Assembly (NCBI GenBank): GCA_013619035.1
Contig: JABXKX010000099.1
Coordinates: 1-17,963 of the forward strand
Reading direction: 5' to 3'
Origin: Peptostreptococcaceae bacterium
Lineage (GTDB): Bacteria; Bacillota_A; Clostridia; Peptostreptococcales; Acidaminobacteraceae
DNA length: 17,963 nt
Positions 4,210 through 9,804 of this stretch are shown one piece after another; within the stretch, counting starts at the first letter, position 1; each line of letters opens with the position of its first letter. Position numbers and translations under genes: made by a program. The notes below the pieces were generated by a model, which did no database searches, was not told the DNA's origin, and worked only from the letters and a program-made list of their open reading frames with translations.

Positions 4210-5677
<1,468 letters not shown>

Positions 5678-5752: not shown

Positions 5753-8700
5753 TTATAACTTTGTTACATGAATAGCTGTATCATGTCCATTTAATTTGTA
5801 TGTTTCGAATGTGTTGCTTTCTACTCTTATAAGTTCTTTTGCAAGTGTTTCATCCATAATATAATCCTTATGAAGTTCAACTGCTTTTACAAATTCATCT
5901 GAAGAGTTGTATTCAATCTTAATATTATCCATCATTTCGAAGTCGTGTGACTTTCTTAACTGCTGGATTCTAGAGATAATTTCTCTAGCATAACCTTCCT
6001 GAATAAGTTCTTCAGTTAAGTTCGTATCTAAGATAATAAATAAGTTGTTTTCCATTCTTACTGTAAAACCTTCTTTAGCTGAAATAGAAACCATAACCAC
6101 CTCGTTGTTGATTTCAAATTCCTCTCCACCAAGATCTACAGCAATTGACTCACCAGCCTCTAATTTCATCGCTGTAGTAAAAGCATCCATTGAACCAAGA
6201 GCTTTACCCAACATACCTACCTTTTTACCTAAGATCGGTCCAGCAGTTTTGAAGTTCGGCTTTAATGAGAAGTTCATATACTCATCTAAGTTACTAACAA
6301 ATTGTACTTCTTTAACATTTAATTCTTCCATGATCAGATCAGATAAATCTTCGATAACTGATTTGTATTTACCATCTAACATCACATGAGCAATCGGTTG
6401 ACGTACTTTAATCTTTACAGATTCTCTAGCTGCTCTACCAAGTGTTACAAGCGATTTGATAAGATCCATTCTCTCTTCTGTTCTTGGATTGATCAATGCC
6501 TCGTTAGTTTCAGGATAAAGTGCTAAATGTACCGATCTTTCCCCAGTAAGATTTCTATAGATTTCTTCTGTTAAGTACGGTGCAAATGGTGCAGCTAACT
6601 CACAAATTGTAACAAGTACTTCATGAGTTGTGTTGTATACTGCTTTTTTATCTTCTGTTAATTCAGAATCCCAGAAACGTCTTCTTGATCTTCTGATGTA
6701 CCAGTTAGAAAGATCTTCATTAACAAACTCTTGTAATCCTCTTACAACTCTTGTTGTATCAAAGACATCCATATCTTTTCTAGCATTCTTAATCACATTA
6801 TTTAATTTAGATAAAATCCATCTATCAAGCTCTGGTCTATCTTGAGGCTCAACGTAGAAATCTTTTACATTGATACCATCTGTATTGGCATATAATGTGA
6901 AGAAGTTATAAACATTCTTAATCGTTCTGAAGAATTTACTTTCAACTTCTTGAACGCCCTCTTCGTCAAATTTAGTTGGAGTCCATGCTGGAGATCCATA
7001 GTATAAGTACCATCTTACAACATCAGCGCCATACTTATCGAATAATTCAAACGGATCCACACCATTACCTTTTGATTTAGACATTTTTTTACCGAATTTA
7101 TCCAAGATCAGGTCATTTACTAAAACATTTTTATACGGTGAAGCACCTTTAACAAATGTAGCAATTGCAAGTAATGAGTAATACCAACCTCTTGTTTGGT
7201 CAATACCTTCACAGATGAAATCAGCTGGGAATAAAGAATCAAAGTTCTCTTTGTTTTCAAACGGGTAATGATGTTGAGCAAAAGGCATTGCCCCTGAATC
7301 AAACCAACAGTCAATAACTTCCACAGTTCTTGTCATTGTACCATCACATTTATCACATTTGAAATGAATATTGTCCACATGTGGTCTATGAAGATCAATA
7401 GTCTCATCAATGTCTTCAATCGCTCTTTCAATTAACTCAGCTCTTGATCCAACTGATGTTTTATGTCCACAGTCACATTTCCAAATTGGAAGTGGTGTAC
7501 CCCAGTATCTTGTTCTAGAAATTGCCCAGTCATTTAGATTCTCTAACCAGTTACCAAAACGTTTTTCACCAACATAATTCGGGAACCAATTAACTGTATT
7601 GTTGTTTTCAATTAACTGTTCTTTCAGTCTTGTCATTTCAATATACCAGCTTGGCTTAGCATAGTATAATAACGGTGTATTACATCTCCAGCAATGTGGA
7701 TAGTTATGCATCATTTTTTCTTTTTTGTATACCTTATTTTGTTCACCTAAGTAAATCGTAATGTCTAAATCAGCATCCATTACAAACTTACCTTCCCAAG
7801 GTGTAGTTGTAAATTTACCATCTTCACCAACTGGTTGAAGTACCGGCAAATCATATTTTCTACCAACATTGTAGTCATCCTCACCAAATGCAGGTGCGAT
7901 ATGTACAATACCAGTACCATCTTCAGTAGTAACAAAATCAGCTAATGTTACATAGAAACCTTTTTTATCCGCTTTAACGAATGGTAAGAGTTGCTCATAC
8001 TCAATATGCTCAAGATCTGTACCTTTCATTTCTTCTAATATTTCATACTCAGCACCCATTACTTGTGATGCTAATTTCTTCTCAATAATAAATACTTCAT
8101 CATTTTGTTTAGCTTTGATGTACGTTTCCTTTGGATGTACTGCTAAAGCTACATTTGATGGTAATGTCCAAGGTGTTGTTGTCCAAACTAAGAAATACTC
8201 ATCAGCGTCAACACGTTTAAACTTAGCAGTCAATGTTTGTGATTTGATTTCTTGATAACCTTGAGCCACTTCATGCGAAGCAAGTCCAGTACCACATCTT
8301 GTACAGTAAGGTAAAATCTTATGACCTTCATAGATGTAATCTTGTTTATTGAACTGATCTAAGATCCACCATACAGATTCAATGTAATTATTATCTAAAG
8401 TAATATACGGGTTATCCAAGTCGATCAAATAAGCCATACGTTTTGTCATCTCTTTCCATTGAGACTCGTATTCAAATACAGACTCACGACATTTATCGTT
8501 AAAGTTTGCTAATCCATATTTCTCAATTTCAGTTTTATTGTTAAGACTTAACTTCTTTTCTACTTCAATCTCTACAGGTAATCCATGTGTATCCCAACCA
8601 GCTTTTCTTTTTACTCTATAGCCATTCATTGTTTTATAACGACAAACACTATCTTTAAGCGCTCTTGAAATAACATGGTGAATTCCCGGCTTACCATTTG

Positions 8701-8851
8701 CTGTTGGTGGGCCATCATAAAATACAAAATTTTTCTCTTCTGATCTTTCTTCTACACTTAGATGTAAAAGATCGATATTCTCCCAATAACTTGCGATCTC
8801 TTTTTCTGTTTCAAAGATCTTCTTATTAGAAAGTTCGTTATACTTCGACAT
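5753..8851 (-). CDS. ileS: Isoleucyl-tRNA synthetase, type 2 (IleRS2), with altered GIHH signature
   Basis: Charges tRNA-Ile with isoleucine. The product is 1032 aa, matching the long eukaryote-like type 2 family. The order is a Rossmann catalytic core, CP1 editing domain (TTPWTLPSNVALAVHP; GIVHIAPAFGEDD), internal Cys pairs (CTRC, CWRC, CDC, CDKC) for zinc, the KMSKS loop at residues 589-593, an anticodon-binding helical domain, and a C-terminal domain without the Cys-rich zinc finger that ends type 1 enzymes. GWDTHGLPVE follows the first signature. The class I HIGH motif, expected after PPTANGKP, reads GIHH at residues 56-59, i.e. HxGH with positions 1 and 3 exchanged; this was checked in the DNA at 8675-8686. 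Family literature links GxHH in IleRS2 to very strong mupirocin insensitivity. The start ATG follows AAGGAG. The gene has its own promoter and an isoleucine T-box. Confidence 0.98.
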   Translation of the reverse strand: MSKYNELSNKKIFETEKEIASYWENIDLLHLSVEERSEEKNFVFYDGPPTANGKPGIHHVISRALKDSVCRYKTMNGYRVKRKAGWDTHGLPVEIEVEKKLSLNNKTEIEKYGLANFNDKCRESVFEYESQWKEMTKRMAYLIDLDNPYITLDNNYIESVWWILDQFNKQDYIYEGHKILPYCTRCGTGLASHEVAQGYQEIKSQTLTAKFKRVDADEYFLVWTTTPWTLPSNVALAVHPKETYIKAKQNDEVFIIEKKLASQVMGAEYEILEEMKGTDLEHIEYEQLLPFVKADKKGFYVTLADFVTTEDGTGIVHIAPAFGEDDYNVGRKYDLPVLQPVGEDGKFTTTPWEGKFVMDADLDITIYLGEQNKVYKKEKMMHNYPHCWRCNTPLLYYAKPSWYIEMTRLKEQLIENNNTVNWFPNYVGEKRFGNWLENLNDWAISRTRYWGTPLPIWKCDCGHKTSVGSRAELIERAIEDIDETIDLHRPHVDNIHFKCDKCDGTMTRTVEVIDCWFDSGAMPFAQHHYPFENKENFDSLFPADFICEGIDQTRGWYYSLLAIATFVKGASPYKNVLVNDLILDKFGKKMSKSKGNGVDPFELFDKYGADVVRWYLYYGSPAWTPTKFDEEGVQEVESKFFRTIKNVYNFFTLYANTDGINVKDFYVEPQDRPELDRWILSKLNNVIKNARKDMDVFDTTRVVRGLQEFVNEDLSNWYIRRSRRRFWDSELTEDKKAVYNTTHEVLVTICELAAPFAPYLTEEIYRNLTGERSVHLALYPETNEALINPRTEERMDLIKSLVTLGRAARESVKIKVRQPIAHVMLDGKYKSVIEDLSDLIMEELNVKEVQFVSNLDEYMNFSLKPNFKTAGPILGKKVGMLGKALGSMDAFTTAMKLEAGESIAVDLGGEEFEINNEVVMVSISAKEGFTVRMENNLFIILDTNLTEELIQEGYAREIISRIQQLRKSHDFEMMDNIKIEYNSSDEFVKAVELHKDYIMDETLAKELIRVESNTFETYKLNGHDTAIHVTKL

Positions 8852-8893: not shown

Positions 8894-9037
8894 CTAACCA
8901 AATGTCTCATCAAGGTATTAAAAATCCCTCGACCAAACGCCCTTTCAGAGTATTATAAAATCCCTCGACCAAATGCCCTTTCAGGGTATTAAAAAATCCC
9001 CTGACTAAATACCTCATCAAGGTATTAAAAAATCCCT
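8894..9037 (-). repeat. Four tandem 36-bp repeats between the T-box terminator and ileS
   Basis: Four contiguous units of exactly 36 bp lie at 8894-8929, 8930-8965, 8966-9001 and 9002-9037. Each ends on the plus strand in ATCCCT or ATCCCC after an A-rich run, and most share GGTATTAAAAA. On the minus strand each unit starts with AGGGATTTT or GGGGATTTT, then AATAC, a small hairpin-prone part (for example CCCTGAAAGGG), then TTTGGTC or TTTAGTC. The first transcribed unit is continuous with the 3' arm and T-tract of the T-box terminator, so the units look like duplications of that segment. There are no spacers, so this is not a CRISPR array. The function is unknown. Confidence 0.9.
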
Positions 9038-9253
9038 TGACGTAAGTCAAGGGACGAAATATTTCCGCGGTACCACCCAAGTTGCATAAAGCCTCTTCAT
9101 TTAATGATATCGGTTTTAAACCGGAAAGAACTACTTAATTCATCCTTACAACTCGGAAGTGATCATCCATTTTAACATGTTACTGATTCACACCTGCCAT
9201 CAGCTCTCTTAGAACATCATTAAAAGTCTATCTTCGTCTACGTCTCTATTAAT
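9028..9253 (-). ncRNA. Isoleucine T-box leader (riboregulator) of ileS
   Basis: The T-box core GGGTGGTACCGCGG is at 9065-9078, with the UGG bulge that pairs with the tRNA acceptor end. The Stem I apex is formed by CTGAT (9199-9203) and ATCAG (9183-9187) around a GGTGTGA loop. The specifier region reads GATGATCACTTCCGAG, and the codon ATC at 9161-9163 fits isoleucine and the downstream gene. The terminator follows. Binding of uncharged tRNA-Ile is expected to stabilise the antiterminator and turn on ileS. The transcript start near 9253 is placed from the promoter; the end includes the terminator T-tract. Confidence 0.95.
9033..9054 (-). terminator. T-box regulated terminator of the ileS leader
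   Basis: A perfect 9-bp stem (TCCCTTGAC / GTCAAGGGA) with a TTAC loop runs directly into TTTTTT on the minus strand. Its 5' arm overlaps the 3' half of the antiterminator (CGTCCC), the standard mutually exclusive arrangement. Uncharged tRNA-Ile should favour the antiterminator and read-through into ileS. Confidence 0.92.
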
Positions 9254-9259
9254 ATATGC

Positions 9260-9288
9260 ATTATAACTGAAATTTAATCGTCCGTCAA
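9260..9288 (-). promoter_or_regulatory. Sigma-A promoter for the ileS T-box transcript
   Basis: The -35 TTGACG is at 9283-9288 and the -10 TATAAT at 9260-9265, with an ideal 17-nt spacer, so this is nearly consensus. The -35 is made of the Leu-Thr codons near the end of divIVA, so the promoter overlaps the upstream coding region. The upstream division operon has no terminator of its own here, and its transcripts would run into the T-box terminator. Confidence 0.9.
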
Positions 9289-9804
9289 CTCATCTTCAAC
9301 GACTAATCGATCTAAAACATCAATTTGTTCTCTTAGAATATATTGATACTTTTCTTTGAAGTCCATATAGTCTTTTTTTAGGTCTTCAACGGCATTTAAG
9401 ATTTCTTTATAATCATGTTTTGCTTGATCAATATTCTTATCCGCATCTGCTTTTGCTCGTAAGCGTGTTTCTTCAGCTTCAGTATCTGCAATTTTCATAA
9501 TTTTATTGGCTTCAGCTTCAGCAGTAGATACAACTCTTTTAGCCTCTTCTGCTGCTTTCTTCTTCATATCATTAGATGTAATCTGAGCAACTAATAACGC
9601 ATCTTTTAAAGATTCTTCTTGGTTTTGATATTCTGTTAACTTCATTTCAGATTCTGTTACCTGACTTTTCAAATAGTCAGATTCACGAATCGTCGCTTCG
9701 AGATGTTCAGATATTTTATCTAAAAACTCATCTACTTCAGCTCTATTATAACCATTGAGCGCTTTTGCAAAACTTTTGCCTGCTATATCATTTGGTGTTA
9801 ACAT
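9274..9804 (-). CDS. divIVA: DivIVA-family coiled-coil protein
   Basis: DivIVA binds negatively curved membrane at septa and poles and recruits division or polar partners in Bacillota. The 176-aa product has the conserved N-terminal membrane-binding domain (LTPNDIAGKSFAKALNGYNR, then EVDEFLDKISEHLE) in about the first 35 residues, followed by a long charged coiled coil to about residue 165 and an acidic tail. GGGAGG lies 4 nt before the ATG. It is the last gene of the gpsA-to-divIVA unit; the stop codon overlaps the region of the ileS promoter. Partners in this organism cannot be told from sequence. Confidence 0.96.
   Translation of the reverse strand: MLTPNDIAGKSFAKALNGYNRAEVDEFLDKISEHLEATIRESDYLKSQVTESEMKLTEYQNQEESLKDALLVAQITSNDMKKKAAEEAKRVVSTAEAEANKIMKIADTEAEETRLRAKADADKNIDQAKHDYKEILNAVEDLKKDYMDFKEKYQYILREQIDVLDRLVVEDELTDD

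What the first reader, a model, noticed from the sequence alone, without database searches (positions are those of the whole stretch)
8675..8686. IleRS with the class I HIGH signature rearranged to GIHH
After PPTANGKP, where class I synthetases carry HxGH, this enzyme has G56-I57-H58-H59. The DNA (gga att cac cat on the minus strand) confirms it. The rest of the enzyme is type 2 IleRS and the KMSKS loop is intact. A swap of positions 1 and 3 (GxHH) is described for some type 2 IleRS and gives extreme insensitivity to mupirocin. Here the gene sits in the canonical ileS position and has its own T-box, so it may be the housekeeping enzyme rather than an acquired resistance copy, suggesting natural resistance.
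Basis: partly seen in the sequence, partly recalled or inferred. Interest (0 to 1): 0.75.

Follow-up and report, generated by a model that had tools for sequence, protein, structure and literature searches.

The report
Housekeeping isoleucine enzyme with swapped motif
This bacterium's isoleucine-charging enzyme, probably its ordinary one, carries a rearranged catalytic motif already linked in the literature to strong insensitivity to the antibiotic mupirocin, and its close clostridial relatives share the rearrangement, so it looks like an inherited family trait and not a new or acquired one.

Summary
The ileS gene (5753-8851, minus strand, 1032 aa) reads G56-I57-H58-H59 at 8686-8675, with KMSKS intact at residues 589-593. 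It is a type 2 IleRS.

The motif is ordinary for its kin. The 120 best-listed homologs (of 7998 scored) all read GIHH. Of 80 related genome loci, 78 read GXHH and two lack the N terminus. Forty codon spellings occur, which rules out a sequencing error. On a tree built with the motif masked, the swap is one change. No genome is held for the window. In its relatives it appears to be the only IleRS: 39 of 41 genomes of the same family have exactly one match over the ileS cut-off, and a type 1 query finds this same gene first in the three closest genomes.

This matches the G/AXHH IleRS2 of Brkic et al. 2023 (PMC10485003), where the swap raises mupirocin Ki by up to 10^3-fold. Most likely it is the vertically inherited, T-box-controlled housekeeping enzyme, with predicted but unmeasured mupirocin insensitivity. 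New member of a known kind, low interest. Side leads: type 1 IleRS with HLGT; a terminator-derived tandem array.

The parts
5753..8851 (-). ileS, type 2 isoleucyl-tRNA synthetase, 1032 aa, ATG start
   Evidence: ORF; TIGR00392 965.7 bits over cut-off 621.4; P. megaterium IleRS2 entries up to 1045.1 bits; Pfam PF00133, PF08264, PF19302
8675..8686 (-). GIHH signature motif (GGA ATT CAC CAT), residues 56-59, in place of HXGH
   Evidence: aligned to PmIleRS2 residues 54-57
7073..7087 (-). KMSKS loop, residues 589-593
9047..9249 (-). T-box leader RF00230
   Evidence: 118.6 bits, gathering 93; also upstream of ileS in 6 of 6 relatives scanned
9161..9163 (-). AUC, inferred T-box specifier codon for tRNA-Ile
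   Evidence: read from the Rfam alignment and the sequence; which column is the specifier is recalled knowledge of T-boxes
9260..9288 (-). promoter-like site TTGACG-17-TATAAT just upstream of the T-box
   Evidence: 11 of 12 consensus matches; 2 sites found in the region against 1.8 expected in shuffles, so weak on its own
9032..9055 (-). T-box intrinsic terminator hairpin with U run
   Evidence: 10 pairs; a 39-nt stretch holding it folds at -16.4 kcal/mol
8897..9041 (-). 36-bp tandem array, 4.1 copies, resembling the terminator 3' arm and U run
   Evidence: about one degenerate extra unit in L098, none seen in L001 (by eye)
9274..9804 (-). divIVA, next gene upstream
   Evidence: PF05103 116.6 bits
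4757..5719 (-). RluD-type pseudouridine synthase, next gene downstream
   Evidence: PF00849 128 bits and S4
4210..4755 (-). pyrR-like phosphoribosyltransferase
   Evidence: PF00156 89.7 bits; the name pyrR is recalled from resemblance and position

Best explanation
The gene is the housekeeping, and probably only, isoleucyl-tRNA synthetase of an Acidaminobacter-like clostridium. It is a type 2 IleRS whose class I signature is the naturally occurring swap GXHH. By analogy with the solved GVHH variant of P. megaterium IleRS2, the third His (His58) takes the catalytic place of the first His of HXGH, and the same bulky side chain clashes with mupirocin, so the enzyme should be active yet very insensitive to the drug. 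Shown here: sequence, type, conservation, a single origin among the sampled clostridia, single copy in close relatives, T-box leader. Inferred: catalysis by His58, mupirocin insensitivity, and regulation by tRNA-Ile charging.
For: GIHH confirmed. 120 of the 120 best-listed homologs GIHH; 78 of 80 genome loci GXHH, 2 truncated; 40 codon spellings. Tree of 164 rows (162 different) with the motif masked: the swap needs 1 change, local support 99, separating 119 GXHH rows from 41 HXGH type 2 rows. Copy number: 5 of 5 genomes have one strong hit (65-89% identity) and one weak hit of 28-32% identity; 39 of 41 family genomes have exactly one match over the ileS cut-off; a type 1 query finds the same gene first in G001, G033 and G034. 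T-box in the window and in 6 of 6 relatives scanned. Brkic et al. 2023 (sections 4, 6, 8, 9, 11 and 31 read): 86 G/AXHH and 77 HXGH IleRS2; natural ALHH enzyme Ki 6.6 mM; motif exchanges change Ki about 175- to 823-fold (their Table 1). Phenotype, weak: on media with 100 mg/L mupirocin (plus acetic acid, some with norfloxacin) mainly clostridia grew, the passage naming Paraclostridium bifermentans and Paeniclostridium sordellii and stating that clostridia seem naturally resistant (PMC11064412, passages); two other Paraclostridium species lie among the GXHH rows (L006, L007).
Against: No kinetic or susceptibility data for this enzyme or organism. The window's genome is not held. Two of 41 family genomes have no match over the cut-off (G018, G028), probably assembly gaps but untested. 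The 34 matches below the cut-off were not identified: 33 are frames of 799-933 aa matched only from profile position 265 on, which I take for ValRS-like, and one (G016) is a 229-aa N-terminal piece, probably the rest of a gene split over contigs. Laboratory swaps cost up to 10-fold in kcat or KM (PMC10485003), so full activity is assumed. The culture evidence does not single out the swap: C. perfringens, C. baratii and C. colicanis are named in the same passage, and I did not determine their IleRS type.
Confidence: 0.92

Rival explanations
1. An acquired mupirocin-resistance IleRS of the MupA/MupB kind sitting beside a sensitive housekeeping type 1 enzyme elsewhere in the genome.
For: MupA and MupB are the top NCBIfam matches by score (992.7 and 972.5 bits), as expected for a type 2 IleRS. 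The window's genome is not held.
Against: Both are far below their cut-offs of 1900 bits; no second IleRS recognised in close relatives; no mobile genes recognised among the window ORFs (by inspection only; four ORFs were checked against Pfam); the gene groups with its clade; a T-box leader is present in 6 of 6 relatives scanned.
Confidence: 0.03
2. The GIHH sequence is a sequencing or assembly error over a canonical HIGH motif.
For: None found.
Against: The 120 best-listed homologs and 78 of 78 readable loci carry GXHH, in 40 different codon spellings.
Confidence: 0.005
3. The enzyme is as described, but the swap is kept for a reason other than mupirocin (catalytic entrenchment, or another natural inhibitor of the adenylate pocket), with insensitivity to mupirocin a by-product. 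This concerns why it is kept and can be true together with the best explanation.
For: No reversion seen among 119 GXHH rows; I know of no documented contact of most of these anaerobes with mupirocin producers (recalled, not searched).
Against: No direct test; published data show that canonical and swapped motifs both work in type 2 enzymes, and a natural reversion is reported in Deinococcus-Thermus (PMC10485003).
Confidence: 0.25

Closest known systems
G/AXHH type 2 IleRS (Brkic et al. 2023, PMC10485003; natural examples Deinococcus radiodurans ALHH and Streptomyces griseus)
   Same: Same swap of positions 1 and 3, in a type 2 enzyme, with intact KMSKS
   Different: Middle residue Ile; clostridial lineage; no kinetics available. 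Whether their 86 sequences include this lineage was not checked (supplements not open to me)
Priestia megaterium IleRS2, PDB entries 8C8U, 8C8V, 8C8W, 8C9D (identified)
   Same: Best solved-structure match, aligned over residues 13-1010; 8C8W is the GVHH variant
   Different: Natural PmIleRS2 is HVGH and sits beside an IleRS1 (PMC10485003); GVHH there is a laboratory variant
MupA / MupB acquired mupirocin-resistance IleRS
   Same: Type 2 IleRS family
   Different: Scores 992.7 and 972.5 bits against cut-offs of 1900; not an extra copy in relatives
T-box leader (RF00230) of aminoacyl-tRNA synthetase genes
   Same: 118.6 bits, full-length model match, terminator present
   Different: Followed by a 36-bp tandem array of terminator-like units

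Membership tests
Type 2 IleRS (IleRS2) | Closer to type 2 than to type 1 sequences | tested here: met
   PmIleRS2 entries up to 1045.1 bits against 404.6 (8c9f), 399.4 (1ffy) and 396.4 (8c9e) for type 1
Type 2 IleRS (IleRS2) | Lacks type 1 Tyr, NKIL and SSL signatures; has HYPFE (list from PMC4861432) | tested here: met
   PPTANG, no NKIL, no SSL, HYPFE at 528
Type 2 IleRS (IleRS2) | No C-terminal zinc-binding Cys4 cluster | tested here: met
   Last Cys at residue 750 of 1032; 120 of 120 listed type 1 proteins have the cluster in the last 80 residues
G/AXHH IleRS2 | G or A, hydrophobic, H, H at the class I signature | tested here: met
   GIHH
G/AXHH IleRS2 | Mupirocin Ki in the millimolar range | not testable with these tools
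   needs purified enzyme
G/AXHH IleRS2 | Catalytically competent | not testable with these tools
   inferred from conservation and single copy in relatives
Acquired MupA/MupB | Score above the curated NCBIfam cut-off | tested here: not met
   992.7 and 972.5 bits against 1900
Acquired MupA/MupB | Extra copy beside a sensitive type 1 ileS | tested here: inconclusive
   Not so in 39 of 41 related genomes nor the three closest; window genome not held
T-box riboswitch, Ile | RF00230 match at gathering score with terminator | tested here: met
   118.6 bits over 93; terminator 9055-9032
T-box riboswitch, Ile | Ile specifier codon | tested here: inconclusive
   AUC aligns to the specifier position as I recall it

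The most novel reading that the evidence does not exclude
The swapped motif arose once in the ancestor of this clostridial branch and became locked in by its protein background for a reason unrelated to mupirocin (catalysis, or another adenylate-pocket inhibitor), so that a large branch of anaerobes is intrinsically insensitive to this drug class as a by-product.
Probability: 0.25. Interest if true: 0.35.

Novelty: new member of a known kind. Interest (0 to 1): 0.15.

Why it matters
It places a published enzyme variant in what looks like the housekeeping IleRS of a broad clostridial branch, including named human-associated genera, and predicts intrinsic mupirocin insensitivity there without any acquired gene. 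The practical value is in annotation: such genes top-score against MupA and MupB (below the cut-offs) and should not be called acquired resistance. The paired observation that many sampled clostridial type 1 enzymes end their signature in Thr (HLGT) instead of His suggests that the motif is less fixed in IleRS1 than the published survey of 158 sequences says.

Tried and rejected
Sequencing error: rejected. Acquired MupA/MupB copy: rejected on curated cut-offs and copy number in relatives. Strict synteny argument: weakened; divIVA within 1.5 kb upstream in 21 of 69 relatives, ylmH in 2 more, neither in 46; rluD within 3 kb downstream in 3 of 66 (BLAST with window proteins, so distant orthologs may be missed). 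Susceptibility literature: the listings showed no paper on MIC or Ki for this clade by title or abstract start; of the papers listed there I opened passages of PMC4861432, PMC5147926, PMC9437257, PMC11064412 and PMC13085705 besides PMC10485003, and only the culture-plate passages of PMC11064412 and PMC13085705 bear on it. No structure prediction was run: close solved structures already settle the fold, and a model would not give Ki.

Sampling limits and dropped rows. Left out of the tree: L045 (GLHH, but no open stretch over 600 aa in the script), L048 and L055 (N terminus cut off), L072 (PPTANN not caught by the pattern; GIHH read). The tree holds a few genomes twice (for example L003/L088, L040/L082, L010/L189, L020/L164, which are identical or nearly so). 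The 60 class-level genes were taken in order of family score from the listed rows of type 2 length, not at random, and the list was cut; at most 4 candidates per genome were scored, so second copies could have been missed there.

Full report
Observation. The minus-strand ORF 8851-5753 encodes a 1032-residue isoleucyl-tRNA synthetase. Residues 56-59 are Gly-Ile-His-His, from GGA ATT CAC CAT at 8686..8675, and KMSKS is at residues 589-593. TIGR00392 scores 965.7 bits over a cut-off of 621.4. The best solved relatives are four P. megaterium IleRS2 entries (1033.9-1045.1 bits, aligned over residues 13-1010 for the best); type 1 entries 8c9f, 1ffy and 8c9e score 404.6, 399.4 and 396.4 (P. megaterium entries identified, 1ffy recalled). 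Window residues 56-59 align with PmIleRS2 residues 54-57, HVGH in 8c8u and GVHH in 8c8w. Type 2 signatures listed in PMC4861432 (passages) are met: Thr instead of Tyr in PPTANG, no NKIL, no SSL, HYPFE at 528, last Cys at residue 750.

The motif is a clade trait. The 120 best-listed homologs (of 7998 scored) all read GIHH. Of 80 genome loci with record titles, 78 are readable and all are GXHH: 72 GIHH (one of them, L072, read), 4 GVHH (L019, L023, L024, L079, all titled Clostridioides difficile) and 2 GLHH (L040, L045); L048 and L055 lack the N terminus. The 20 best-scoring loci fetched from the family of G001, the genome of L001, are all GXHH (15 GIHH, 5 GLHH). The 119 GXHH sites found by pattern use 40 different codon spellings, so the residues are held while the DNA drifts.

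Wider class. In a class-level sample of 196 genomes, 191 have a match at 1e-110, one each except G201 with two; at most 4 candidates per genome were scored. Of 63 type 2 genes read from it (60 fetched by score order, plus L123, L128, L130), 22 are GIHH and 41 are HXGH (38 HIGH, 3 HVGH). The other 27 of the 30 best-scoring loci of that search are type 1. A FastTree tree of 164 rows (160 type 2 with the window, 4 type 1), with the motif masked, separates the 119 GXHH rows from the 41 HXGH type 2 rows by one change, local support 99; the window sits next to L098 (98% identical), then L001, Acidaminobacter sp. JC074. The rows are not a random sample and only this class is covered, so this says nothing on GXHH enzymes elsewhere; Brkic et al. 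infer at least two origins overall.

Copy number. No genome is held for the window. In five relatives each genome has one strong hit and one weak hit of 28-32% identity in frames of 886-920 aa. In the family of G001, 39 of 41 genomes have exactly one match over the ileS cut-off; G018 has only a weak match and G028 none. Of 34 matches below the cut-off, 33 lie in frames of 799-933 aa matched only from profile position 265 on, which I take for ValRS-like proteins without having identified them; one in G016 is a 229-aa piece matching positions 8-200, probably the rest of a gene split over contigs. A type 1 IleRS query finds the same GIHH gene as the best match (33% identity) in G033, G034 and G001, the three genomes nearest to the window on the tree, with only weaker matches below it. 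So the close relatives appear to live on this enzyme alone. Brkic et al. state that the two types generally occur individually (section 4).

Control region. A promoter-like site (9288-9260; 2 sites in the region against 1.8 expected) precedes a full-length T-box (9249-9047, 118.6 bits) with a terminator at 9055-9032. AUC at 9163-9161 aligns with the specifier position as I recall T-box anatomy. T-boxes lie upstream of ileS in 6 of 6 relatives scanned. The gene thus appears to be regulated by the charging state of tRNA-Ile, as expected for a housekeeping synthetase (inference).

Mechanism and prior knowledge. Brkic et al. 2023 (PMC10485003; outline, passages and sections 4, 6, 8, 9, 11 and 31 read) report 86 G/AXHH and 77 HXGH IleRS2 among 379 sequences. 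They measured Ki 6.6 mM for natural ALHH D. radiodurans IleRS2, falling 823-fold on change to HVGH, and gains of about 175- and 426-fold for the reverse exchange in two canonical enzymes (ratios from their Table 1). Their crystal structures put the third His in the catalytic place of the first; a model shows it clashing with mupirocin. The window enzyme fits this kind in every feature I could test. Its insensitivity is predicted, not shown. Culture evidence agrees but is not specific: media with 100 mg/L mupirocin and acetic acid, some with norfloxacin, gave mainly clostridia, the passage naming Paraclostridium bifermentans and Paeniclostridium sordellii but also C. perfringens, C. baratii and C. 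colicanis, whose IleRS I did not examine (PMC11064412, passages). Another paper reports its best coverage of Clostridiaceae on a mupirocin medium (PMC13085705, passages).

Side findings. (1) Of the 27 type 1 loci (the best-scoring ones, not random), 12 read HXGT and 15 HXGH at the signature; among the 120 best-listed homologs of one HLGT enzyme, 104 read HLGT, 15 HXGH and 1 was not readable by the pattern, with Acetivibrio and Ruminiclostridium among the HLGT names. Brkic et al. state that HXGH is present in all their IleRS1; one search for 'HXGT' with the enzyme name found no paper. (2) The window leader has a 36-bp, 4.1-copy array (8897-9041) resembling the terminator 3' arm and U run; by eye the sister L098 has about one degenerate unit and L001 none, so it probably expanded recently. 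The first extra unit can form a terminator-like hairpin (-7.9 kcal/mol), the others weaker structures (-3.3 to -5.0), and a strict terminator scan finds only the T-box terminator itself. The 209-nt stretch folds with z -4.12, as expected in part from the repeats and the terminator alone.

Verdict. Real, correctly read, and ordinary for its clade: most likely a housekeeping GXHH type 2 IleRS.

Noticed in passing
L101-L129 without L123 and L128 (type 1 loci) and P0121-P0240: Many clostridial type 1 IleRS carry HXGT (fourth His replaced by Thr) at the class I signature: 12 of 27 best-scoring loci and 104 of 120 best-listed homologs of one of them, including Acetivibrio and Ruminiclostridium, although the published survey says HXGH is present in all its IleRS1.
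   Followed up: partly
window 8897-9041: 36-bp tandem array (4.1 copies) resembling the T-box terminator's 3' arm and U run, between the T-box and ileS; about one degenerate unit in sister L098, none seen in L001. It may add weak terminators downstream of the attenuator; a strict scan finds none beyond the T-box terminator.
   Followed up: partly
G017, G019, G020, G021, G024, G034, G044: These genomes have a second, shorter (799-849 aa) weak IleRS-profile match besides the usual one of about 880-930 aa; it may be a second valyl-tRNA synthetase (not identified).
   Followed up: no
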